Position numbers and translations under genes: made by a program
Source of the DNA: Nocardioides cavernae
GTDB lineage: Bacteria > Actinomycetota > Actinomycetes > Propionibacteriales > Nocardioidaceae
Direction: 5' to 3'
Assembly (NCBI RefSeq): GCF_016907475.1
Contig: NZ_JAFBCA010000001.1
Coordinates: 434,001 to 498,000, forward strand
DNA length: 64,000 nucleotides
Shown here: piece after piece, positions 32,354 to 43,417 of the stretch
Position numbering within the stretch: position 1 is the stretch's first letter
Layout of the letters: each line of letters opens with the position of its first letter
Notes under the pieces: model-generated
What the model saw: the letters and a program-made list of their open reading frames with translations, nothing else
What the model was told of the DNA's origin: nothing
Databases searched by the model: none

Positions 32354-32794
32354 TCAGGCGCGTTCGAGGAGGAAGAGCGGGATCTCCCGGTCGGTCTTCT
32401 CCTGGTAGGAGGCGTACGTCGGCCACGTGGCGACGGCGTGCTCCCACCAGTCGGCGCGCTCGTCGCCGTCCAGGATCCGGGCCTTGTAGAGGTGCGGCTC
32501 CGCGCCGTCCTGCACCTCGACCTCGGGGTGGGCGACGAAGTTGTAGTACCACTCCGGGTTGTCCGGCGCGCCGCCCTTGGACGCAACCGCGAGGTAGGCG
32601 CCGTCTCGCTCGACGCGCATCACCGGGTTCTTGCGGAGGTTGCCCGACTTCGCACCGACGGACGTGACGACGACGATCGGGTACTTCGTGCCCGGCAGCG
32701 TGTTGGCCTTCTCGCCGCCGCTGCCCTCGTACTGCTCCACCTGCTTGCGTACCCACTCGGCCTTGCTCGGGACATAGGTTCCAGTCAGTGCCAT
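32354..32794 (-). CDS. Deazaflavin (F420)-dependent nitroreductase-family protein
   Basis: A 146-residue split-beta-barrel protein of the Ddn family, found almost only in F420-producing actinobacteria and relatives. Conserved blocks are LTGTYVPSKAEWVRKQVEQYE near the N-terminus, PIVVVTSVGAKSGNLRKNPVMRVE (the F420 phosphate-binding region), YLAVASKGGAPDNPEWYYNFVAHPEVEVQ, and YASYQEKTDREIPLFLLE at the end. Ddn homologues use reduced F420 to reduce quinones or nitro compounds. The ATG at 32794 gives the normal family length; an upstream in-frame start would add an unrelated basic stretch. It is divergent from menB, which makes a menaquinone precursor, so a link to quinone reduction is plausible but inferred. 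Confidence 0.86.
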   Translation of the reverse strand: MALTGTYVPSKAEWVRKQVEQYEGSGGEKANTLPGTKYPIVVVTSVGAKSGNLRKNPVMRVERDGAYLAVASKGGAPDNPEWYYNFVAHPEVEVQDGAEPHLYKARILDGDERADWWEHAVATWPTYASYQEKTDREIPLFLLERA

Positions 32795-32855
32795 GCCTGC
32801 CACAACACCACGGCCGGCAGTCCTCTTCCACACCCGCACGGATAGCCTCCGGACC

Positions 32856-33800
32856 ATGAGTGCGATCGAGGGCGTCAGCGAGATCTTCGACCCCGAGGCC
32901 TGGGACGTGGTGCCCGGCTTCGACGACCTCTCCGACCTGACCTACCACCGCGCCCGCGAGCACGGAACGGTCCGGATCGCCTTCGACCGGCCCGATGTGC
33001 TCAACGCGTTCCGCCCCCACACGGTCGACGAGCTGCTGCGCACGCTCGAGCACGCGCGTACGGCGGCCGACGTCGGCTGCGTGATCCTCACCGGCAACGG
33101 CCCGAGCGCCAAGAACGGCAAGTGGGCCTTCTGCACGGGCGGCGACCAGCGGATCCGCGGCAGGGCCGGCTACCAGTACGAGGACACGTCGGCCGGCGCC
33201 GCCGACACCGGGGCCGAGGAGCCGAGCCCCATCGACAAGGCGAGGCTCGCCCGCCTCCACATCCTCGAGTGCCAGCGGCTGATCCGCTTCATGCCCAAGA
33301 TCGTCATCTGCGTCGTCCCCGGCTGGGCGGCCGGCGGCGGGCACAGCCTGCACGTCATCGCGGACCTCACCCTCGCCAGCCGCGAGCACGCCCGCTTCAA
33401 GCAGACCGACGCCGACGTCGGCTCCTTCGACGGCGGCTACGGCTCGGCGTACCTCGCCCGCCAGGTCGGGCAGAAGTTCGCCCGCGAGATCTTCTTCCTC
33501 GCCGACGAGTACGACGCCGAGGAGATGCACCGGATGGGCGCGGTCAACCGCGTCGTCGAGCACGCCGACCTCGAGAAGGTCGCCCTCGACTGGGGCCGGA
33601 AGATCAACGGCAAGTCGCCGACCGCCCAGCGGATGCTGAAGTACTCCTTCAACCTGCTCGACGACGGCCTGGTCGGCCAACAGCTCTTCGCCGGCGAGAC
33701 CACCCGCCTGGCCTACATGACCGACGAGGCGCAGGAGGGGCGCGACCAGTTCCTCGAGAAGCGCGAGCCCGACTGGTCGCCCTACCCCTGGTACTACTGA
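32856..33800 (+). CDS. menB: 1,4-dihydroxy-2-naphthoyl-CoA synthase
   Basis: A 314-residue crotonase-fold enzyme that closes the ring of o-succinylbenzoyl-CoA in menaquinone biosynthesis. It matches M. tuberculosis MenB over long blocks, as I recall that sequence: FCTGGDQRIRGRAGYQY, RLHILECQRLIRFMPKIVIC, PGWAAGGGHSLHVIADLTLA, FKQTDADVGSFDGGYGSAYL, ARQVGQKFAREIFFL and PDWSPYPWYY. The GGDQR oxyanion/bicarbonate region and the conserved Asp of DADVGSFDGGYGS are intact. The start is ATG 32856, 7 nt after TAGCCT (32843-32848), without a Shine-Dalgarno. No other men gene is in the window. A nested hairpin follows. Confidence 0.96.
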   Translation: MSAIEGVSEIFDPEAWDVVPGFDDLSDLTYHRAREHGTVRIAFDRPDVLNAFRPHTVDELLRTLEHARTAADVGCVILTGNGPSAKNGKWAFCTGGDQRIRGRAGYQYEDTSAGAADTGAEEPSPIDKARLARLHILECQRLIRFMPKIVICVVPGWAAGGGHSLHVIADLTLASREHARFKQTDADVGSFDGGYGSAYLARQVGQKFAREIFFLADEYDAEEMHRMGAVNRVVEHADLEKVALDWGRKINGKSPTAQRMLKYSFNLLDDGLVGQQLFAGETTRLAYMTDEAQEGRDQFLEKREPDWSPYPWYY

Positions 33801-33877: not shown

Positions 33878-34918
33878 TCAGCTGGTCGCGAGGGTGTGGT
33901 TGTCGATCTCCGGGTAGTGCCTGCGGATGTTCACCTTGCGCTCGAGCTCGGCGATGATCGCGGGCGCGAAGTTGACCTCGTAGAGGCTGTGGGCGCTGCC
34001 GAGGCCGCCGGGGCTGAAGACGTTGATCTCCATCAGCTTGTCGCCGACGATGTCGAGGCCCACGAGGAACATCCCGTCGGCGACCAGCTTGGGCCGGACG
34101 ACCTCGACCATCTGCAGCATCTCGTCGGTGATCTTGACCTTCTCGGCCTTGCCCCCGGCGGACATGTTGCTGCGGATGTCCTTCGTGGACGGCGTACGCC
34201 GGAAGGCGGCGTACTCGCCGTCGACGACCAGCGGCTGGCCGTTCATCACGAACATCCGGACGTCGCCCTTGGCCGCCTCGGGGAGGTACTCCTGCGCCAC
34301 CACGTAGCCGTCGCGCGAGATCGCCTCGATGATCTGCTTGAGGTTCGGCGCCTCCTTGCGGTCGACCAGGAAGACGCCCGCGCCGCCCGAGCCCTGGAGC
34401 GGCTTGAGGACCGCCTTGCCGCCGAGGTCCTTGATGAACTCCTCGATGCTGTCCTCGTCGCGCGAGATGAGCGTGCGCGGGCGGACGATCTCGGGGAAGT
34501 GCTGGAAGTAGGCCTTCGACAGCGCGTTGGCGAGGCTGGTCGGGTCGTTGACCACCAGCACACCGCTGGAGGCGATCAGCTGGCCGAAGGCGACGCCGGC
34601 GTTGTTGCGCCACGGGTCGGTCTCGGCGTCGTCGGCGGGGTCGTTGCGCAGCATCACCACGTCGAACTCGTCCAGGCCGATGGCCTGCTCGACGTCGGGC
34701 TTCTGGACGTCGGCCATGTGCCGCTCGAGGGAGCGGTAGGTCTTGGCGTGGCCGGCGCGGGCCTTGGTGCTCAACGAGCCGTCGGGCTCGTAGGCGAAGT
34801 CGCCGATGCCCATGTACCAGGCCTCGTGCCCCATCTCCTTCGCGGCCAGGGCGAGGCGGTTGGTGGTGTACTCCGCCTTCTCCGTCTCGATGTCGTTGAC
34901 GACGAATCCGATCTTCAT
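33878..34918 (-). CDS. Glutathione-synthase-like ATP-grasp ligase
   Basis: A 346-residue cytoplasmic ATP-grasp enzyme of the GshB/RimK type, which joins a carboxylate (as acyl-phosphate) to an amine. An N-terminal pre-ATP domain starts MKIGFVVNDIETEKAEYTTN. The ATP-grasp core has Lys172 and the glycine-rich loop KPLQGSGGAGVFLV (172-185), GDVRMFVM (218-225), GLDIVGDKLMEINV (287-300; Asp289, Glu297 and Asn299 bind Mg-ATP). It lacks the gamma-glutamylcysteine partner GshA, so true glutathione synthesis is doubtful; actinobacteria usually make mycothiol. It is the last of three coupled genes, and its ATG overlaps the stop of the DUF1704 peptidase. A peptide or amino-acid ligase role is the best inference. 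Confidence 0.83.
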   Translation of the reverse strand: MKIGFVVNDIETEKAEYTTNRLALAAKEMGHEAWYMGIGDFAYEPDGSLSTKARAGHAKTYRSLERHMADVQKPDVEQAIGLDEFDVVMLRNDPADDAETDPWRNNAGVAFGQLIASSGVLVVNDPTSLANALSKAYFQHFPEIVRPRTLISRDEDSIEEFIKDLGGKAVLKPLQGSGGAGVFLVDRKEAPNLKQIIEAISRDGYVVAQEYLPEAAKGDVRMFVMNGQPLVVDGEYAAFRRTPSTKDIRSNMSAGGKAEKVKITDEMLQMVEVVRPKLVADGMFLVGLDIVGDKLMEINVFSPGGLGSAHSLYEVNFAPAIIAELERKVNIRRHYPEIDNHTLATS

Positions 34919-36102
34919 GCGTGTCCCTCCAAGAGTGTGCTGAGGTCTTCGGTGCCGGCCGCGCGGGCGAGGTTGTCGTGCGCGGACGGGTCGTGCAGGT
35001 ATCGGGGCAGGACGCGGGGCGGTCGCAGCAGGCCTCGGGACTCGAGGTCACCGATGAGCGGCAGGTCGCGCAGGGAGAACTTGCCGAGCCACAGCTGGTC
35101 GAGCGGGCCGCCCGCGCCGAGGTGCTCGAGCAGCTCGACGAGCCCGCGCAGGTAGATCGCGTCCTTGGTCATCCCGCCGGACCGGTAGACCCGCATCACG
35201 GTGGTCCACGCGCTGCCGCTCGGGAAGTCGTCGGCGACCAGCGCCTCGTGGGCCTCGGCGAACGTCGCCCCCGCGACGAGGCGGTGGACGGTGACGACCC
35301 GGCTGGCGAGCTGGCGGAGGCGGAAGGCGGTCAGCCCGCCGCACGCGATCTCGGCGAGGACGGCAAGGCCCTCCTGCGTCTCGTCGTAGCCCGCGAGCCC
35401 GACGCCGAGGACCTTGATCGGCTGGTGGCTGCCGTTGGCCTGGGTGACGAGGTGCGTGCCCACCTCGTGGTGGAGCAGCGCCTGGGCGCGCGCCTGCTGG
35501 ACCTTGGTCTCGGGGCCGATCAGCAGCACGTCGCCCGAGACCATGACGCCGTTGACGTCCGGGCGGATCTCAGCGTGCATGTCGAGGTCGGGGTCCTCGT
35601 CGTGGTAGCGCGCGATCTCGGCCTCGGCCAGCTCGAGGAACGCCTCGGCGTCGAGCGGCTCGTCGGTCGGCTCGGTGCGGGTGATGCCGGACAGCAGCGC
35701 CTCGGCCTGCTTGCGCAGCGCCGGCGACACCCCGCCGTACAGCTCCACGCTCAGCGGCAGGAAGTCCTCGGTGCCACGCGCCTCCAGCATGTCGAGCTGG
35801 AGCTCCATCTCGCGGTGCTTGGCGCGCAGCAGCTGCCCGAGGACGGGGTCCTCGACGGTCGTGAGGTCGATGTCGTCGAGCTCGGCGCGTACGACGGCGG
35901 GGTCCGTCTCGAGCGCGCGGTAGGTGAACGGCGGATCGGGCTCGCGACCCTCCAGGAAGTCGTCGCGCAGGTCGTCGGCGTCGACCGGCGTGATGTCGAG
36001 CAGGAAGCGGAAGCTCTGGGCGAGCAGGGACAGACGGTGGTCCACGGCCAGGTCGGTGGCGCTGAGCTCCACACCCGGCTCCACTGGGCCGCCGTCGGTC
36101 AC
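34915..36102 (-). CDS. DUF1704/MATCAP-like metallopeptidase (QEGLA family)
   Basis: A 395-residue protein of the family named for its QEGLA motif. The zinc site is readable: H212-E213-V-G-T-H217 in LLHHEVGTHLVTQ and Glu244 in DETQEGLAVLAE, a HExxxH-E arrangement. The same family includes the animal MATCAP (KIAA0895) tubulin tyrosine carboxypeptidases, which remove a C-terminal residue. Bacterial members have no established substrate, and the database name about flavohemoglobin expression is historical. The start GTG overlaps the stop of the amidohydrolase gene (GTGA at 36099-36102), and the stop overlaps the ATP-grasp start (ATGA). It is likely cytoplasmic, as no signal peptide is visible. 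Confidence 0.85.
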   Translation of the reverse strand: MTDGGPVEPGVELSATDLAVDHRLSLLAQSFRFLLDITPVDADDLRDDFLEGREPDPPFTYRALETDPAVVRAELDDIDLTTVEDPVLGQLLRAKHREMELQLDMLEARGTEDFLPLSVELYGGVSPALRKQAEALLSGITRTEPTDEPLDAEAFLELAEAEIARYHDEDPDLDMHAEIRPDVNGVMVSGDVLLIGPETKVQQARAQALLHHEVGTHLVTQANGSHQPIKVLGVGLAGYDETQEGLAVLAEIACGGLTAFRLRQLASRVVTVHRLVAGATFAEAHEALVADDFPSGSAWTTVMRVYRSGGMTKDAIYLRGLVELLEHLGAGGPLDQLWLGKFSLRDLPLIGDLESRGLLRPPRVLPRYLHDPSAHDNLARAAGTEDLSTLLEGHA

Positions 36103-36902
36103 CGCAGCTTCTCGAGCTCGATGTGCAGGCCGGGCAGTGCCGCGGCGAGGCCCTGCTGCGCGGAGCGGAGGCGGTCGTTGTGCAGCTTGCCGGTCCACTC
36201 GTCCATGAAGGTCTTCTTGAACTCGAGAGCCAGCACGCAGCCCACCCGCGGGTAGCGGTCGTGGACCCACCAGGCGAGGTTGCGGCCCTCGAAGGCGACG
36301 TTCTCCCGCGCGTCGATCGGGCCGCAGCCCAGCGAGGCGTCGCGCAGGTCACCCATGAACCGCTCCACGAGCGGGCCGAAGACGTCGTCCTCCACGGTGC
36401 CGGTGCCGACGTTGACCTCGGGGTTCTCCGAGGCCGGGGCCGGCGGCTCGTCGGCGCCGTCGCGCCGGTGGTTGTAGGAGTGCACGTCGAGCAGCACGAA
36501 GGGGCCGCGCTCGGCCAAGGCGTCGAGCCGCGGTGCGAGGGCGTCGTAGAAGGCGTCGTACGTCGCCAGGCTGCCCTCGAAGAGCTCGTCGGACAGCTCG
36601 CCGTCGCGCCACACCTCGAGCCCCCAGCAGTCGTCGGGCTTGCGGTAGACCGCCTCGCGGCGGGGCCGGTTGAGGTCGGCCTCGAAGCGGGAGCGCGACG
36701 TGATGACGTGGTCGGGGACCACAGCAGCGAGCCGGTCGGTGAACGGGTCCTCCTCGCGGAAGCGTTCCGCCCGGTCGAGCACCATCGCCTCGGCGATCTC
36801 GGGCCGCAGGTCGTGCCCCGCGTGCACTGAGGTCGCCACGACGGGCCCGTCCCATTCACCGACGAACGCAACAGCGTCCGACGTCCCTCCCACGTCAGTC
36901 AT
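36099..36902 (-). CDS. N-formylglutamate amidohydrolase-family protein
   Basis: A 267-residue zinc amidohydrolase-like protein. The family motifs are present: SVHAGHDLRPE (residues 26-36), the diagnostic FEADLNRPR (73-81) and LLDVHSYNH (137-145), with EFKK near the C-terminus. Classic members (HutG type) split N-formylglutamate to formate and glutamate in histidine breakdown, but no hut gene is nearby. Here it is the first gene of a coupled trio with a peptidase and an ATP-grasp ligase, which suggests a different N-acyl-amino-acid or peptide substrate. ATG 36902 gives the normal family length. The divergent sirtuin gene starts 91 bp away. Confidence 0.82.
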   Translation of the reverse strand: MTDVGGTSDAVAFVGEWDGPVVATSVHAGHDLRPEIAEAMVLDRAERFREEDPFTDRLAAVVPDHVITSRSRFEADLNRPRREAVYRKPDDCWGLEVWRDGELSDELFEGSLATYDAFYDALAPRLDALAERGPFVLLDVHSYNHRRDGADEPPAPASENPEVNVGTGTVEDDVFGPLVERFMGDLRDASLGCGPIDARENVAFEGRNLAWWVHDRYPRVGCVLALEFKKTFMDEWTGKLHNDRLRSAQQGLAAALPGLHIELEKLR

Positions 36903-36993: not shown

Positions 36994-37671
36994 ATGCGGA
37001 TCGTCGTCCTGACCGGTGCCGGGATCTCCGCCGAGAGCGGCCTCACCACGTTCCGCGACTCCGGCGGCCTCTGGGAGGGCCACGACCCGATGCAGGTCGC
37101 CACCCCGGAGGCGTACGCCGACGACCCGGGCCTCGTCCAGCGGTTCTACGACGCCCGGCGGGCGGCGCTGTCGCGGGTCGAGCCCAACGCTGCGCACCAC
37201 GCGCTCGTACGCCTCGAGGACGCCCTCGGCGACGACCTGCTCGTCGTGACCCAGAACGTCGACGACCTGCACGAGCGTGCCGGCTCCCGACGGGTGCACC
37301 ACATCCACGGACGGCTGCAATCGGCCTGGTGCACGCGCTGCGGCGAGCGCCACGAGTGGTACGGCGCACTGGCGGACGGACCCGCCTGCCCCTCGTGCGG
37401 CGTGGCCGACCTGCGCCCCGACATCGTGTGGTTCGGCGAGATCCCCTACGGCATGGACCTCGTCGAGCAGGCGCTGGAGGAGTGCGACCTCTTCGTCTCG
37501 ATCGGCACGTCGGGAGTCGTCTACCCGGCCGCGGCGTTCGTGCACTGGGCGCGCGGCGCCACCCTCGAGCTCAACCTCGAGCCCAGCGCCGGCGCCACCG
37601 ACTTCGCCGAGTCCCGGCAGGGTCCGGCCACCCGCCTCGTGCCCGCCTGGGTCGACGAGCTGCTCGCCTGA
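36994..37671 (+). CDS. cobB: NAD-dependent protein deacylase, sirtuin class III
   Basis: A 225-residue sirtuin. NAD-binding GAGISAESGLTTFRD (residues 8-22), Gln/Asn/Asp in TQNVDDLHERAG and catalytic His105 (HHIHG) are present, with a structural zinc site Cys113, Cys116, Cys132 and Cys135. Tyr52 and Arg55 (FYDARR) are the pair that marks desuccinylase activity in SIRT5/CobB-type enzymes. It probably removes acetyl and succinyl groups from lysines of metabolic enzymes. The ATG at 36994 follows TAGGAC by 6 nt with no good Shine-Dalgarno. The divergent neighbour starts the amidohydrolase-peptidase-ligase operon. Confidence 0.92.
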   Translation: MRIVVLTGAGISAESGLTTFRDSGGLWEGHDPMQVATPEAYADDPGLVQRFYDARRAALSRVEPNAAHHALVRLEDALGDDLLVVTQNVDDLHERAGSRRVHHIHGRLQSAWCTRCGERHEWYGALADGPACPSCGVADLRPDIVWFGEIPYGMDLVEQALEECDLFVSIGTSGVVYPAAAFVHWARGATLELNLEPSAGATDFAESRQGPATRLVPAWVDELLA

Positions 37672-38464: not shown

Positions 38465-40267
38465 TCAGGAACCTGAGCCGGCTCGAGGCACGAGCGGCCG
38501 GAAGTTCAGGCGGACGCGGGTGCCGCGACCGAGCGTCGACTCGACCTCGATGCCGCCGCCGTGGCGCTGCATGATCTCCCGCACGATGCCGAGGCCGAGA
38601 CCCGTGCCGGGCCGCATCAGCGCCGCCTCGTTGGTCGAGCGGAACAGCGGGGCGAAGAGGTTGGCCTGGTCGGCCTCGGAGATGCCGAGTCCCTCGTCGT
38701 TGCAGACGAAGGACAGCCCGCCGTCCGGCCGGTGCTCGACGCCGATCCACACCTCGTGGCCGGCGTCGGAGTACTTCACCGCGTTGTCGACGAGGTTGGA
38801 CACCGCGCTGGCGATCTCGCGCGGGTCGCCCAGGACGACAGCCTCGCCGAGGTCGCCGACGAGGTGGAGCGTGATTCCGGAGCGCTCGGCGACGGCGGTC
38901 ATCGCCGCGAGCGTCTCCTCGACGACCGGGACCAGGTCGACCTGCTGCATGGCAGGCGGCTGCTGCGGGTCGCTGACCTGCGACAGCATCGACAGCCCCT
39001 GGAGCAGGTCGCCCAGCCGCTCGCTGGCCCGCAGGATGGCCTGGGCACGCCGCTGGTCGCGCTCGTCGATGGTCTCGCTCGACGCGAGGAACTCGGCGTT
39101 GGCGGCGATGACCGTCATCGGGTTGTTGATCTCGTGGGTCAGCTCGCGGAGGAACCAGTGCCGCGCCACCTCGAGCTCGCGCAGCTCCTCGAGCAGGCGG
39201 CGCTCGCGCTGGGTGGCCTGCGCGTTGGCGATGGCGCGTCCGAGGTCGTGTCCGAGCTCCAGCGCGGCGACGCCCTCGCCGTCGGTCCAGCGGCGCGAGC
39301 CCGTGCGCCGCGCGCACATCAGCATGCCGAGCACCGTGTCGTCTACGCCGACGGGAGCGACGACGACCGCCTCGAATCCGGCCTTGTCGAGCGCGGTGGT
39401 GAACCAGTCGGCGTACGCCGCGAGCTCGGGGTCGCCCCAGACGTGCCCGGGCTCGATGATGAGCACCCGCTGGTGGGTCCACGCACGCGCCGCTGCCCCG
39501 TCGAGCGCTCGCCGCACCTCGGGCGCCATCTTGAGCCCCAGGCTGTCGGGGCTGCCGGTGTCCTCGTCGATGAAGACCCGGATCTCCAGCTCGTCGACGT
39601 ACAGCGCCCCGAGCAGGGTCGATCGGGCCTCACGCAGCAGGTGGTTGACGTCGTGGCGGGCGGGGTTGGACCGCGCGAGTCGGCGGGTGGCCCGGATGAC
39701 CCGCATGTGGTCGGCGTACTCCTCGCGCTCGACCACCGTGAGGATCGAGCGCAGGATCGTGGCGAGCTCGTCGCTGACGTCGAGGAGTCGCGCGCCGTCG
39801 GGTCGTGCGAGGTCGTGCGGCACGTCGAGGTAGAGCAGCGCGCGCAGGTCGCCGCGCTCGTCGTCGATCCGGGCGACGAGCATGTCCATGGGGTGCCAGT
39901 CGCCCTGCTCGCCGTCGGTCGGGAGGTCGGGGACGACGATCACGCCGTCGATGCGCTCGCGGATCTCCTCGGAGAGGTTCTCGAACGGGATCCAGAGGAA
40001 GTGGCCGTGCTCCTCGCCCTGGGCGAAGACGAGCTGCATGTCGGACAGGCGCGACGCCGTGCCTAGGCGCTCCTCGGCGCTGGCCGGGTCGCCGTGGATC
40101 GCGACGAACTCGAGCAGGCCCTTGGGCCGCACCACCTCGATCGCACACACGCGGAAGCCCGTGCGGGCGGCGGCGTCGCCGGCCAGGGCGTGCATGAGCG
40201 CGCGCGCCCGCGCGTCACCCCAGCTGAGGTCGCGCGTCCTGCGCTCCCCTGTCCGCACCTGCTCCAT
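38465..40267 (-). CDS. Soluble sensor histidine kinase, paralogue A
   Basis: A 600-residue cytoplasmic kinase without transmembrane helices. The N-terminal ~150-residue domain (ALMHALAGDAAARTGFRVCAIEVVRPKGLLEFVAIHGD) is shared with the next gene. A GAF-like domain follows at ~205-350. The dimerisation/phosphoacceptor box is FLRELTHEINNPMTV with His378. The ATPase has N box SNLVDNAVKYSD, G1 NDEGLGIS and G2 GTGLGLGIV. The overall design is that of a kinase reading a diffusible cytoplasmic signal. No response regulator is adjacent. ATG 40267 has a GGGAGG about 11 nt upstream. The gene lies 116 bp downstream of its paralogue on the same strand. Confidence 0.88.
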   Translation of the reverse strand: MEQVRTGERRTRDLSWGDARARALMHALAGDAAARTGFRVCAIEVVRPKGLLEFVAIHGDPASAEERLGTASRLSDMQLVFAQGEEHGHFLWIPFENLSEEIRERIDGVIVVPDLPTDGEQGDWHPMDMLVARIDDERGDLRALLYLDVPHDLARPDGARLLDVSDELATILRSILTVVEREEYADHMRVIRATRRLARSNPARHDVNHLLREARSTLLGALYVDELEIRVFIDEDTGSPDSLGLKMAPEVRRALDGAAARAWTHQRVLIIEPGHVWGDPELAAYADWFTTALDKAGFEAVVVAPVGVDDTVLGMLMCARRTGSRRWTDGEGVAALELGHDLGRAIANAQATQRERRLLEELRELEVARHWFLRELTHEINNPMTVIAANAEFLASSETIDERDQRRAQAILRASERLGDLLQGLSMLSQVSDPQQPPAMQQVDLVPVVEETLAAMTAVAERSGITLHLVGDLGEAVVLGDPREIASAVSNLVDNAVKYSDAGHEVWIGVEHRPDGGLSFVCNDEGLGISEADQANLFAPLFRSTNEAALMRPGTGLGLGIVREIMQRHGGGIEVESTLGRGTRVRLNFRPLVPRAGSGS

Positions 40268-40383
40268 GGCGTCTCGCCCTCCCACCGCCACGTGGATCGT
40301 AGGCGGGCGAAGGTGGACACCGGACCGTTTTCCGCAGGTTGCGGCCTGCACTGTGGACGAGCCGTTGCCGGGTGGACGACGCG

Positions 40384-42153
40384 TCAGCGCGCCGCGCGCG
40401 GGCGGCCGACCGGCAACCACACGGTGAACGTCGTCCCCTCGCCGAGCACCGACTCAACCTCGACCGTCCCGTCGTGGCCGGTCACGACACGCTCGATGAT
40501 CGCGAGTCCGAGGCCGGTGCCCGGGCGCTTGCGCGCCTCGGGGCTGCTCGAACGGAAGAAGGGAGCGAACACCTTGTCGACCTCGGCGGCGGAGATGCCG
40601 ATGCCGGTGTCGGTGCAGGTGATCAGCACCCCCGCGACCCCGTCCACCGCGCGGCGCGAGACGTCCATCGCGACCCGCCCACCCTCGGGGGTGTACTTGA
40701 CCCCGTTGGACAGGAGGTTGGAGACCATCCGCTGCAGCCCCGCCGACTCGCCGGTCACCACGAGGTCGTCCGCGACGACCGTCCGCATCGCCACGCCGGC
40801 CCTCGCCGCCATGGGGGCGAGGAAGTCGCTCGTCTCCCGCACCAGGTCGGACAGGTCGACCTCGCCCATCGGGGCGCCCCGGTCGGGATCGCTGACCGAG
40901 GCGAGGGTCATCAGGTCCGCCACCATGTCCTCGATGCGCCGCGCCGCCCGGTCGAGCGCCTCGAGCGAGTGGCTCGACTCCTCGGAGTGCGTCTCGAGGC
41001 CCAGCAGCTCGAGGTGGGAGAACAGCACGCTGACGGGGTTGCGCAGCTCGTGGGCGAGGGTCAGGACCATGTCGCGGCGGTAGTCGTTGACGTCGCGGAG
41101 CTCCACGTTGAGCGCGCGCTGACGCTCCATCAGCCGCCCCTCCAGCAGCAGCCGGGCCAGGTCGGAGGCGACGGTCGTGGCGGCGTTGATCTCGGAGGCG
41201 TTCCAGCTCGGTGCGTCGGGCGCCCGACCCATCGACAGCGTGCCGAGGTACTCCTCGCCGGCGCCGATCGGCACCAGCAGGCCCGACCCGAGGGCGTACG
41301 TGTCGAGCAGGCGCGTGAGCGAGGGTGGGGTCTCGATCGACTCCTCCTTCATGCTCCACGTGTGCTGTCGCTCGACGACCACGTGGCCGCGCCGCGCCCA
41401 CTGCCCGCGCATCAGCTCCGTCACGTGGAGCCGGTCCGCTTCGATGCCGGGCACGTCGGAGCCCGCCACGATCACGTCGACGGTCGCGACGTCCATCGCC
41501 TCGACCATGGCTCGTGACAGCTCCCTCGACAGGTCCTGCACGCCCAGCCCCGGTCGTACGCTCTCGATCGCGCGCCGCGCCTGGGTGACCATCCGCACCT
41601 GCTCGCCGTAGAGCTCGCGCTCGACGATGCTGATGACCGCCTCGAACAACACCCCGGCCTCGGCGTTGATCGCCGCCGCGCCCTCCGGAGTGGGACGCAG
41701 CCCGGACCACGGCTCGTCGAGGTAGAGCAGCCCGCGCAGCTCGCCGTCCTCGTTCTCCAGCAGGCGCACCATCTGGTCGTCGGGGTCCCAGCCGTTGGGG
41801 AGGCCCGAGGCCGGCACGTCCGGCTTGTGGCCGTACTCGTCGAGCCAGGCGCGCGTCTCGTCGTCGAGCCGCTCGCTCGGGATGTGCCTCCAGCCGGCCA
41901 GCTCCACACCGAGCTCGCGGATGTGGTCGAGGGCGAGCGGCGAGGCCTGGCCGAGCATCTTGTCGCGGGCGGCGTCGTCACCGGCGATCGCCACGAACTC
42001 CAGGTAGCCGTCGGAGCGCAGCGCCTCGATCGCCACCACCTTGTGGTGGGTGCGCTTGGCGAGGTCCTCGGCGATGGCGTGCAGCACCGCGCGCTGGGCC
42101 TCGTTCCCCCATGCGCGTCCCCGCGGGCGTACCCACAGCCCGTCGTCGTCCAT
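40384..42153 (-). CDS. Soluble sensor histidine kinase, paralogue B
   Basis: A 589-residue cytoplasmic kinase. The N-terminal domain VLHAIAEDLAKRTHHKVVAIEALRSDGYLEFVAIAGDD aligns without gaps to the first domain of the neighbouring kinase, including LEFVAI-GD. A GAF-like region spans ~200-340. The phosphoacceptor is His368 in VLTLAHELRNPVSVLF. The N box is VSNLLSNGVKYTPEGG, with G1 TDTGIGIS and G2 GTGLGLAI. The two kinases are clearly a tandem duplication that has diverged in the sensor middle. No partner receiver is adjacent, so the target must be encoded elsewhere. It is divergent from an acyl-CoA dehydrogenase gene. Confidence 0.88.
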   Translation of the reverse strand: MDDDGLWVRPRGRAWGNEAQRAVLHAIAEDLAKRTHHKVVAIEALRSDGYLEFVAIAGDDAARDKMLGQASPLALDHIRELGVELAGWRHIPSERLDDETRAWLDEYGHKPDVPASGLPNGWDPDDQMVRLLENEDGELRGLLYLDEPWSGLRPTPEGAAAINAEAGVLFEAVISIVERELYGEQVRMVTQARRAIESVRPGLGVQDLSRELSRAMVEAMDVATVDVIVAGSDVPGIEADRLHVTELMRGQWARRGHVVVERQHTWSMKEESIETPPSLTRLLDTYALGSGLLVPIGAGEEYLGTLSMGRAPDAPSWNASEINAATTVASDLARLLLEGRLMERQRALNVELRDVNDYRRDMVLTLAHELRNPVSVLFSHLELLGLETHSEESSHSLEALDRAARRIEDMVADLMTLASVSDPDRGAPMGEVDLSDLVRETSDFLAPMAARAGVAMRTVVADDLVVTGESAGLQRMVSNLLSNGVKYTPEGGRVAMDVSRRAVDGVAGVLITCTDTGIGISAAEVDKVFAPFFRSSSPEARKRPGTGLGLAIIERVVTGHDGTVEVESVLGEGTTFTVWLPVGRPRAAR

Positions 42154-42271
42154 CACCGTTCCCACCGCCCGTCCCGAGCCCGACGACCGCGACGTTACGC
42201 TGAATCCGGTCGTCCCGGACCCTCTTCCGGGTGATGGGCACGGCTTGGTGACTCGCGGGTAACATAGCGGC

Positions 42272-43417
42272 ATGAAGCGTGAGATCTACGACGAGGACCA
42301 CGAGGCCTTCCGCGCCTCGGTCAAGCAGTTCCTGGACCGCGAGGTCACCCCCCAGCTCGAGACGTACGCCGGCAACCACGGGCTCGACCGCGACTTCTGG
42401 CTCGCCGCCGGCAAGCAGGGCTTCCTCGGCCTCGAGATCCCGGAGGAGCACGGCGGCTCCGAGGCCGGCGACTACCGGTTCAACGCCGTCCTCACCGAGG
42501 AGCTCGCCAAGGTCAACATGACCCTCCCGAGCTGTGTCGGCATCCACGCCGACATCACGGTCCCCTACCTCGTCCACCTCACCAACGACGAGCAGCGGGC
42601 ACGCTGGCTGCCGCGGGCCGCGACCGGCGAGCTCGTCACGGCCATCGGCATGACCGAGCCCGGCGGCGGCTCCGACCTCGCCAGCCTCCGGACCACCGCC
42701 GTCCGTGACGGGGACGACTGGGTGATCAACGGGTCCAAGACCTTCATCACCAACGGCGGCTCGGCCGACCTCGTGCTCGTCGCGGCCCGCACCAGCCCGG
42801 AGAAGAAGGCCAAGGGCATCTCGCTCTTCGCCGTCGACACCACGCTGGACGGCTTCAGCGTCGGCCGCGTGCTCGACAAGGTCGGCCAGGACGACTCCGA
42901 CACCGCCGAGCTGTCCTTCGAGGACGTGCGCGTCAGCAACGACGACCTCGTCGGCCCGCTGGACACCGGCTTCATCTCGATGATGCAGTTCCTCCCGCAG
43001 GAGCGCCTCGGCTCGGCGATCACCAACCTCGCCCACGCCAAGCAGATCCTCGAGGAGACGATCCAGTACGCCAAGGACCGGCAGGCGTTCGGCCAGGCCA
43101 TCGGCTCGTTCCAGAACACCCAGTTCCTGCTCGCCGACCTCGTGACCCGCGTCGACGTCACCCAGGCGTTCGTCGACCAGTGCGTCGTCGCGCACACCAA
43201 GAAGGAGCTGACACCCGTCGACGCCGCCAAGGCCAAGTGGTGGACCTCGCAGGTGCAGAACGACGTGCTCGACCACTGCGTGCAGGTGCACGGTGGCTAC
43301 GGCTACATGAACGAGTACCGCGTGGCCCGCGCCTGGCGCGACGCCCGCGTGACCAAGATCTGGGCGGGCTCCAACGAGATCATGAAGATGCTGATCGGCC
43401 GCGACCTCGGGCTGTGA
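42272..43417 (+). CDS. Acyl-CoA dehydrogenase
   Basis: A 381-residue FAD enzyme that introduces the alpha-beta double bond in acyl-CoA. Signature 1 is AIGMTEPGGGSDLASLRTTA (FAD and substrate binding). The catalytic base region is WAGSNEIMKMLIGRDLGL near the C-terminus, preceded by QVHGGYGYMNEYRVARAWRDARV (signature 2). The Glu is thus at the late (isovaleryl-type) or standard position; chain length and branching of the substrate cannot be read with confidence. The start is ATG 42272, 6 nt after TAACAT (42260-42265), with no Shine-Dalgarno, so leaderless. No electron-transfer flavoprotein gene is nearby. Confidence 0.9.
   Translation: MKREIYDEDHEAFRASVKQFLDREVTPQLETYAGNHGLDRDFWLAAGKQGFLGLEIPEEHGGSEAGDYRFNAVLTEELAKVNMTLPSCVGIHADITVPYLVHLTNDEQRARWLPRAATGELVTAIGMTEPGGGSDLASLRTTAVRDGDDWVINGSKTFITNGGSADLVLVAARTSPEKKAKGISLFAVDTTLDGFSVGRVLDKVGQDDSDTAELSFEDVRVSNDDLVGPLDTGFISMMQFLPQERLGSAITNLAHAKQILEETIQYAKDRQAFGQAIGSFQNTQFLLADLVTRVDVTQAFVDQCVVAHTKKELTPVDAAKAKWWTSQVQNDVLDHCVQVHGGYGYMNEYRVARAWRDARVTKIWAGSNEIMKMLIGRDLGL

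What the first reader, a model, noticed from the sequence alone, without database searches (positions are those of the whole stretch)
33878..36902. Coupled trio: formylglutamate-amidohydrolase-like, MATCAP-like peptidase and ATP-grasp ligase
Seen: three genes joined by GTGA and ATGA overlaps. They encode an N-formylglutamate amidohydrolase-type protein (HAGH, DLNRP and DVHSYNH motifs), a DUF1704 metallopeptidase (HEVGTH plus QEGLA) and a GshB-like ATP-grasp ligase. Known: in animals DUF1704 members (MATCAP) strip the C-terminal tyrosine of tubulin, and an ATP-grasp enzyme (TTL) adds it back. Inference: this operon could be a bacterial add-and-remove cycle for an amino acid on a protein or peptide C-terminus, with the amidohydrolase trimming an N-acyl amino acid. 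No gshA and no hut gene is nearby, which argues against glutathione synthesis and histidine breakdown. The gene linkage may have been catalogued before; a function has not been established as far as I know.
Basis: partly seen in the sequence, partly recalled or inferred. Interest (0 to 1): 0.75.

Follow-up and report, generated by a model that had tools for sequence, protein, structure and literature searches.

The report
Conserved bacterial peptide trim-and-ligate cassette
Three neighbouring genes in a Nocardioides-like bacterium encode two likely amide-cutting enzymes and one amide-building enzyme; the set recurs in distant bacteria and one member is a relative of the human enzyme that clips tubulin tails, so it may be a bacterial add-and-remove system whose target is not yet known.

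Summary
The three overlapping genes are real and exactly placed. The set is a widespread cassette: 71 of 80 loci chosen by MATCAP similarity alone carry FGase, MATCAP and ATP-grasp ligase in that order (71 of the 75 not cut by a contig end), with full sets in eight phyla. In 296 Actinomycetota genomes the ligase family (over 300 bits) and trio-type MATCAP fall in the same 7 genomes. Three loci have FGase and MATCAP fused in one ORF. In loci L085-L110, 27 of 28 non-actinobacterial MATCAPs carry a Pfam-orphan N-domain that profile comparison marks as a decayed FGase, so the two hydrolases probably form one complex. The ligase, named glutathione synthetase by NCBI, forms its own branch (62 of 63 rows) with residues that differ from GshB. 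Against: five Pseudomonadota genomes with the cassette have a gshA-type match and no other GshB. In a published Photobacterium data set 'GshB' and the QEGLA gene with the next locus tag rise 38- and 27.5-fold in low salt. Best reading: a trim-and-ligate cassette acting on a peptide or protein carboxyl end. Substrate, residue and cycling are unproven.

The parts
36099..36902 (-). FGase-family amidohydrolase (PF05013), first gene of the operon; the family's conserved motifs (HxGH, REEDP, SRFExDxNR, DxHSYNHRR, RENVxFxG, EFKKxFMDEW) are present; which of them bind metal is assumed, not tested
   Evidence: TIGR02017 HutG only 18.7 bits against a cut-off of 278.75
34915..36102 (-). MATCAP/DUF1704 metallocarboxypeptidase-type protein (HEVGTH at residues 212-217, QEGLA at 243-247), GTG start, trio subfamily, short form without the decayed-FGase N-domain
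33878..34918 (-). ATP-grasp amide ligase of NCBI subfamily NF009110/PRK12458 ('glutathione synthetase'), phylogenetically apart from GshB
36099..36102 (-). GTGA stop-start overlap, FGase to MATCAP
   Evidence: sequence
34915..34918 (-). ATGA stop-start overlap, MATCAP to ligase
   Evidence: sequence

Best explanation
The operon encodes a trim-and-ligate cassette. The MATCAP protein is a metal-dependent carboxypeptidase that removes a C-terminal residue; the ATP-grasp protein activates a carboxylate as acyl phosphate and joins an amine to it; the FGase-type protein is a metal-dependent amidohydrolase of an N-acyl or side-chain amide. MATCAP and ligase work on the same carboxyl end of one peptide or protein substrate, so that the end residue can be removed and replaced, and the FGase is held in the same complex as MATCAP (by covalent fusion in some lineages, probably by pairing with a decayed FGase domain on MATCAP in others). 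Shown by computation: gene set, order, overlaps, co-occurrence, fusions, likely decayed FGase domain, intact family motifs, separation from GshB. Inferred from family knowledge: the enzyme activities. Inferred: shared substrate, complex, direction and reversibility. Unknown: the substrate and the residue.
For: Order FGase-MATCAP-ligase in 71 of 80 loci chosen by MATCAP similarity alone, full sets in eight phyla by record title. Ligase family (over 300 bits) and trio-type MATCAP in the same 7 of 296 Actinomycetota genomes, adjacent in all 7. FGase fused to MATCAP, with the FGase motifs kept, in Tessaracoccus sp. SD287 (L068), an unnamed Pseudomonadota genome (L192, HAGE in place of HxGH) and Photobacterium sp. 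DA100 (L266). Decayed FGase N-domain: hhalign 95.8%, E 7e-9, score 66.5 with a balanced FGase set; 60 column-shuffled controls at most 20.2. Catalytic residues conserved: H, E and H of HEVGTH, E of QEGLA, matching HExxxH plus EEG of human TMCP1/MATCAP1 (passages of PMC10499314; alignment). Multiplied modules in Planctomycetota (FGase-MATCAP-ligase-ligase-MATCAP-ligase in 4 loci). Precedent for a bacterial ligase/protease pair including a hybrid enzyme: RimK/RimB (abstract and outline of PMC11957791).
Against: No other gene, and so no substrate gene, is conserved beside the trio. Co-transcription of a ligase and two hydrolases fits small-molecule metabolism as well. Four Actinomycetota loci have MATCAP and ligase without a neighbouring FGase (L023, L027, L089, L098), as has L196 up to its contig end; in L194 and L198 the FGase lies 1.4-2 kb off. 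One Magnetococcales paralogue (L107 = L193) has neither partner, and L189 has none either. The decayed-domain match depends on the profile: 83% with the first FGase set, 33% with query and template exchanged, 4.8% (same register) with an actinobacteria-heavy FGase set, 95.8% with the balanced set that I made after that weak result; Pfam finds no PF05013 in any of the 23 domain sequences. No structure could be predicted.
Confidence: 0.4

Rival explanations
1. Small-peptide metabolite pathway: the ligase builds an N-acylated or otherwise blocked di- or tripeptide (possibly an osmolyte or redox compound), FGase removes the acyl cap and MATCAP trims the end when it is recycled; no protein is modified.
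For: Ligase is GshB-like in both domains and length; FGase-family enzymes act on N-acyl amino acids (N-formylglutamate; general knowledge); the ligase paralogues of Planctomycetota clusters fit stepwise peptide building; strong low-salinity induction of the ligase and QEGLA genes in Photobacterium damselae (passages of PMC10308900) fits osmolyte turnover.
Against: No transporter or biosynthetic gene is conserved with the trio; the characterised relatives of MATCAP act on tubulin tails (passages of PMC10499314).
Confidence: 0.33
2. The ligase is a working glutathione (or gamma-glutamylcysteine-derived thiol) synthetase, and the two hydrolases recycle the thiol or its conjugates.
For: NCBI names the subfamily glutathione synthetase. 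Five cassette-bearing Pseudomonadota genomes (G312, G323, G354, G426, G486) have a PF04107 match of 250-283 bits but no GshB over the TIGR01380 cut-off and no PF03917 synthetase, so the trio ligase is their only candidate seen. The own genome has a YbdK-family protein over an NCBI glutamate--cysteine ligase cut-off.
Against: Separate branch and group-specific residues; the seven ligases of the five genomes named carry the trio residues at all seven positions checked. 6 of 28 cassette genomes have neither PF04107 nor PF04262. G559 keeps GshB, a PF04262 gshA and a PF03917 synthetase besides its divergent trio ligase. In none of the 28 is a gshA-type match next to the cassette.
Confidence: 0.12
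3. Scavenging module: the two hydrolases break down imported or damaged blocked peptides and the ligase merely detoxifies or stores one product.
For: Two hydrolases to one ligase in the basic set; patchy distribution (12 of 296 Actinomycetota and 28 of 299 Pseudomonadota genomes with any PF08014); found on plasmids of rhizobia.
Against: Peptidase and ligase are the least separable pair (ligase in 77 of 80 loci); no uptake gene conserved.
Confidence: 0.1
4. Part of histidine breakdown (HutG-like N-formylglutamate hydrolysis).
For: FGase family membership only.
Against: HutG model 18.7 bits against a cut-off of 278.75 (24.4 bits in a Calditrichota relative); no other neighbour family is conserved.
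Confidence: 0.02

Closest known systems
RimK/RimB (RimABK) ribosomal S6 polyglutamylation system
   Same: Bacterial ATP-grasp ligase that adds amino acids to a protein, working with a protease that removes them; a hybrid ligase-protease enzyme exists (abstract and outline of PMC11957791)
   Different: RimB is a retropepsin-like aspartic protease; here a MATCAP metallopeptidase and an FGase. The trio ligase scores higher with GshB models (195-216 bits) than with the RimK family model (84 bits)
Human MATCAP1/TMCP1 (KIAA0895L) and the tubulin tyrosine ligase cycle
   Same: Same peptidase family with the same HExxxH plus (E/Q)EG motif; trio profile matches PDB 7z5g at 5.6e-14; in both cases an ATP-grasp ligase stands opposite (TTL: general knowledge)
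   Different: No tubulin or other protein shown as target; the bacterial ligase has GshB-type domains and was not compared with TTL here; I know of no FGase partner in the tubulin system (recalled)
Glutathione synthetase GshB (TIGR01380)
   Same: Both Pfam domains, length and ATP-grasp core residues
   Different: Below the equivalog cut-offs (195 against 299.05 bits), own branch, different residues at e.g. the NVTSPTC to NVFSPGG and RGN to RSN positions
Solo bacterial QEGLA proteins (TIGR02421 'flavohemoglobin expression-modulating')
   Same: Same peptidase family and catalytic motifs
   Different: Separate branch (13 of 14 solo rows, support 99), and no trio partners in the 22 such loci among 32 Pseudomonadota loci examined

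Membership tests
MATCAP / DUF1704 (PF08014) | Pfam model over cut-off | tested here: met
   271.7 bits, cut-off 27
MATCAP / DUF1704 (PF08014) | HExxxH and downstream EG metal ligand | tested here: met
   H212 E213 H217 E244, invariant in A5; compare passages of PMC10499314
MATCAP / DUF1704 (PF08014) | Carboxypeptidase activity on C-terminal residues | not testable with these tools
   No assay; no model could be made
TIGR02421 QEGLA equivalog | Score over curated cut-off 338.65 | tested here: not met
   306.3 bits for the window protein; 342.1 for a Calditrichota relative of the same trio type
GshB glutathione synthase | Score over TIGR01380 or NF003573 cut-off | tested here: not met
   195 against 299.05; 216.1 against 272
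GshB glutathione synthase | Groups with GshB in a tree | tested here: not met
   62 of 63 trio ligases one branch, 98; 12 GshB rows one branch, 99
GshB glutathione synthase | Partner gshA in the genome | tested here: inconclusive
   PF04107 in 21 of 28 (many of YbdK-like length), PF04262 in 1 of 28, neither in 6 of 28; own genome:
NF009110 (PRK12458) subfamily | Score over cut-off 408 | tested here: met
   449.3 bits
FGase PF05013 | Pfam cut-off and conserved motifs | tested here: met
   69.3 bits against 28.9; motifs
HutG N-formylglutamate deformylase | TIGR02017 cut-off | tested here: not met
   18.7 against 278.75
RimK/RimB type add-remove system | Ligase and protease encoded together | tested here: met
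RimK/RimB type add-remove system | Ligase belongs to the RimK family (TIGR00768) | tested here: not met
   84.1 against 143.4 bits
RimK/RimB type add-remove system | Protein substrate whose C-terminus is extended and trimmed | not testable with these tools
   needs proteomics

The most novel reading that the evidence does not exclude
The cassette is a bacterial C-terminal tagging cycle from whose peptidase the MATCAP arm of the eukaryotic tubulin code was drawn: the ligase adds and MATCAP removes an aromatic or other end residue on a bacterial protein, with an FGase (and, in many lineages, a dead FGase copy fused to MATCAP as docking domain) as third subunit, and the cycle is switched by osmotic conditions.
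Probability: 0.14. Interest if true: 0.9.

Novelty: new variant of a known kind. Interest (0 to 1): 0.62.

Why it matters
A Photobacterium transcriptome paper discussed the 38-fold induced 'GshB' as glutathione synthetase (passage of PMC10308900). If the cassette edits protein or peptide ends, it is a further bacterial ligase/peptidase tagging system besides RimK/RimB, and it offers bacterial partners for asking what MATCAP enzymes did before tubulin. The question becomes testable with three proteins and clean deletions.

Tried and rejected
Considered and rejected or set aside: histidine pathway (HutG score far below cut-off); RiPP-type or larger cassette (all-against-all BLAST of 325 flanking ORFs of at least 100 aa from 36 of the 80 loci found no family in more than 4 loci; shorter precursor genes were not searched for); phage gene (one phage record, 26.3% identity over 80% of the query); defence system (padloc was not run). 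Solved structures: FGase profile A3 and N-domain profile A2 hit nothing in the PDB sequences. The first enriched profile test of the decayed-FGase domain was weak (4.8%), I think because that FGase set was mostly actinobacterial; the balanced set of 37, which also holds the FGase parts of two fusions, gave 95.8%. Consensus promoter and terminator scan found none (uninformative in an actinobacterium). Paper searches: DUF1704, 1 paper; QEGLA, 1; 361 papers, 20 titles seen; COG3930, COG3931, TIGR02421, PRK12458; 2; 284 papers, 25 titles seen; 63 papers, 25 seen; gshB2, 2; 3; 1. None of what I saw describes the trio; the capped listings were not seen in full. Two papers that may matter, Iyer et al. 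2009 on amidoligase operons and Landskron et al. 2022 on MATCAP, are not held; what I know of them is recalled, and Iyer et al. may have listed the linkage.
Full report
Observation. Searches confirm three ORFs on the minus strand of the window at the stated coordinates, with GTGA and ATGA stop-start overlaps. Families: FGase PF05013, MATCAP PF08014 and a GshB-domain ATP-grasp protein. NCBIfam puts the ligase in NF009110/PRK12458 over cut-off and below the GshB and RimK cut-offs, the FGase far below the HutG cut-off, and the peptidase below that of TIGR02421. The closest listed MATCAP is 95% identical and named from Nocardioides pinisoli, so the genome (4.85 Mb, one contig) is a Nocardioides or close kin. 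The neighbours are a divergent sirtuin-like gene (36994-37671) and a convergent enoyl-CoA-hydratase-like gene (32793-33800) (names by inspection).

Linkage in Actinomycetota. PF08014 is present in 12 of 296 genomes. With the window proteins as queries, 7 of these 12 (own included) have the ligase directly adjacent and 5 of the 7 have the FGase too; the other five (L020, L021, L022, L024, L030) have neither in the stretch read. The ligase family at over 300 bits occurs in 7 of the same 296 genomes, and they are the same seven; the next best score is 89 bits. The genomes are related, so I give no P value.

Linkage elsewhere. With the profile thresholds, 71 of 80 have FGase, MATCAP and ligase. 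Of the nine others five are cut by a contig end (L073, L088, L093, L100, L102), L074 has split-looking genes and no ligase hit, L089 and L098 lack the FGase, and L107 lacks both. Full sets occur in Actinomycetota, Planctomycetota, Bacteroidota, Acidobacteriota, Calditrichota, Gemmatimonadota, Chloroflexota and Pseudomonadota by record title, several of them metagenome bins. The 80 are those most like the window's protein, so Nocardioides and kin are overweighted. In Pseudomonadota PF08014 is in 28 of 299 genomes. Of 32 loci fetched from them (one short fragment of G426 was not fetched), 10 score over 250 bits with the trio MATCAP profile: 8 of these have the ligase next to it and 5 an FGase (one fused, two at 1.4-2 kb), while L189 and L193 have neither; L197 and L199 are cut on the FGase side. 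The other 22 score 97-158 and have no partner above 52 bits. Annotated plasmid records of Sinorhizobium meliloti, Mesorhizobium and Aminobacter show N-formylglutamate amidohydrolase, QEGLA protein and glutathione synthase or synthetase in a row. No further neighbour family is conserved in the 36 loci compared.

Two MATCAP subfamilies. In a quick maximum-likelihood tree of 76 rows, 13 of 14 solo proteins form one branch (99); the fourteenth, L030, is a very long branch. Fifty-seven of the 59 rows labelled trio, with two identical unlinked Magnetococcales rows inside (L107 and L193, one protein), form one branch (93); the other two trio rows (L192, L266) join the unlinked L189 in a separate branch (99). 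A trio profile matches human MATCAP1 (7z5g) at 5.6e-14 (55.3 bits) and a solo profile at 7.7e-11 (44.7 bits); single sequences give 3.7e-5 and 1.1e-4 for two trio proteins and no match for one solo protein. This hints, no more, that the trio type is the nearer relative of the human enzyme.

Fusions and the decayed FGase domain. Pfam finds FGase and MATCAP in one ORF in L068 (662 aa) and L192 (661 aa), and profiles do so in Photobacterium sp. DA100 L266 (662 aa), right after the ligase. The FGase motifs are present in all three, with HAGE for HxGH in L192. Apart from these, 28 long MATCAPs from 22 loci carry about 260 residues in front of the peptidase; they are 27 of the 28 non-actinobacterial MATCAP ORFs of L085-L110 (the exception is L093) and L100 (counted). 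The 23 aligned match no Pfam family in a consistent way and nothing in the PDB. Profile comparison with FGase gave 83% and E 9e-6, 33% with query and template exchanged, only 4.8% with 71 domain sequences against an actinobacteria-heavy FGase set, and 95.8% and E 7e-9 against 37 balanced FGases, 92.9% when exchanged. Column-shuffled domains scored at most 25.1 in 150 trials, 22.1 in 60 and 20.2 and 21.2 in 60 each, against 45.4, 25.5 and 66.5 and 62.0 for the true order; the ligase control gave about 1%. In the global alignment the domain starts past the FGase HxGH motif and has ExW where FGase has DxHSYN, so it should be inactive. Nineteen of the 22 loci have an FGase gene; L088 and L102 are cut at the edge and L107 has none. 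My reading: the dead copy pairs with the live FGase and ties the two hydrolases together. The window's MATCAP lacks the domain.

The ligase is not GshB by sequence. ATP-grasp core residues are shared with GshB (K135, K172, D219, R221, R241, R249, N251, D289, E297, N299) while other positions differ in a group-specific way between 103 trio and 12 GshB sequences (all 12 from Pseudomonadota): N8 for D, R240 for A, S250 for G, and F301, G304 and G305 for T, T and C. That these lie on the acceptor side is my recollection of the GshB fold, not a test. A tree of 86 rows (63 of the 103 trio ligases, 12 GshB, 11 RimK-like) puts 62 of 63 trio ligases in one branch (98); L192's ligase is a long outlier. 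Genome content: GshB over the TIGR01380 cut-off is found in 0 of 23 cassette genomes (three of them, G297, G301 and G306, with no FGase seen). Of 17 of the 28 Pseudomonadota genomes, it is found in 1 of 6 with the cassette and in 11 of 11 without it. PF04107 is in 21 of 28 cassette genomes, PF04262 in 1 of 28, and 6 of 28 have neither. PF03917 was sought in 22 of these 28 and found in one, G559. Against my reading, G312, G323, G354, G426 and G486 have a strong PF04107 match, no GshB and no PF03917, so the trio ligase might serve as glutathione synthetase there, although their seven ligases carry the trio residues. The own genome has a protein of 644.6 bits against a cut-off of 437 for an NCBI glutamate--cysteine ligase model, which is also over the YbdK subfamily cut-off.

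Expression. In Photobacterium damselae, A0J47_RS17020 (named GshB) is up 38.42-fold and A0J47_RS17025 (QEGLA) 27.51-fold at 1% NaCl (passages of PMC10308900). The locus tags are consecutive and the order, ligase then FGase-MATCAP fusion, would be that of L266; that the P. damselae pair is this cassette is inferred from names, tags and the relative, since its DNA was not read. In Vibrio vulnificus COG3930 and 'glutathione synthetase' are consecutive tags VV2_1203 and VV2_1204 and vary between strains (passages of PMC3091676 and PMC6667273). A review of lactic acid bacteria uses PRK12458 as a GshB marker (passages of PMC3462692), which shows how the name spreads.

Mechanism. Shown: constant gene set, fusions, likely decayed FGase domain, intact motifs, ligase distinct from GshB. 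Inferred: MATCAP removes an end residue and the ligase adds one to the same end, FGase acts in the same complex on an acyl or side-chain amide. RimK/RimB shows that bacteria use such ligase/protease pairs, even as hybrids (abstract and outline of PMC11957791). I prefer a peptide or protein carboxyl end as substrate at 0.4, a small peptide metabolite at 0.33, a glutathione-type role at 0.12. Membership: it belongs to the MATCAP, FGase and PRK12458 families; it is not GshB, HutG or RimK by the tested features; that it works like RimK/RimB or the tubulin cycle is untested.

Limits. No structures could be predicted, so pockets were not compared; activity statements rest on family knowledge. Gene-order counts come from profiles that I built from the loci themselves, and many ORF starts are too long. 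From PMC10499314 and PMC12393276 I saw passages only, from PMC4431377 and PMC8315932 passages that did not bear on the trio.

Noticed in passing
L085, L086, L087, L105 (Planctomycetota): Expanded clusters FGase-MATCAP-ligase-ligase-MATCAP-ligase; the ligase paralogues fall in separate branches, as if each handled a different residue.
   Followed up: partly
L023, L027, L089, L098: Actinobacterial variant with MATCAP and ligase only, no FGase next door; the four MATCAPs form one branch, as do the ligases of L023, L027 and L098 (L089 was not in that tree); neighbours listed.
   Followed up: partly
L107/L193 (Magnetococcales, G312): A second, long-form MATCAP paralogue without ligase or FGase nearby.
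   Followed up: no
L192 and L266: Variant with a divergent ligase followed by an FGase-MATCAP fusion; in L266 (Photobacterium) a LysR-type gene lies divergently upstream (name by inspection).
   Followed up: partly
window 36994-37671: Sirtuin-like gene divergent from the trio; next to it in 10 of 11 Nocardioides loci L031-L041, further off in L041, L045, L048 and L083, and not detected in the rest of the 80 loci.
   Followed up: partly
window 38465-42273: Two tandem histidine-kinase-like genes of similar make-up near the trio (by inspection).
   Followed up: no
genome G297 (Kribbella), contig C19: A GshB-like match (245 bits, below cut-off) lies beside a weak PF04107 match, away from that genome's MATCAP-ligase pair: possibly a separate small thiol pathway.
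   Followed up: no
solo QEGLA proteins, e.g. L175, L267: A partnerless bacterial MATCAP subfamily of unknown role, in 22 of the 32 Pseudomonadota loci read; the 10 such genomes given, and G583 with the unlinked L189, all have true GshB.
   Followed up: partly
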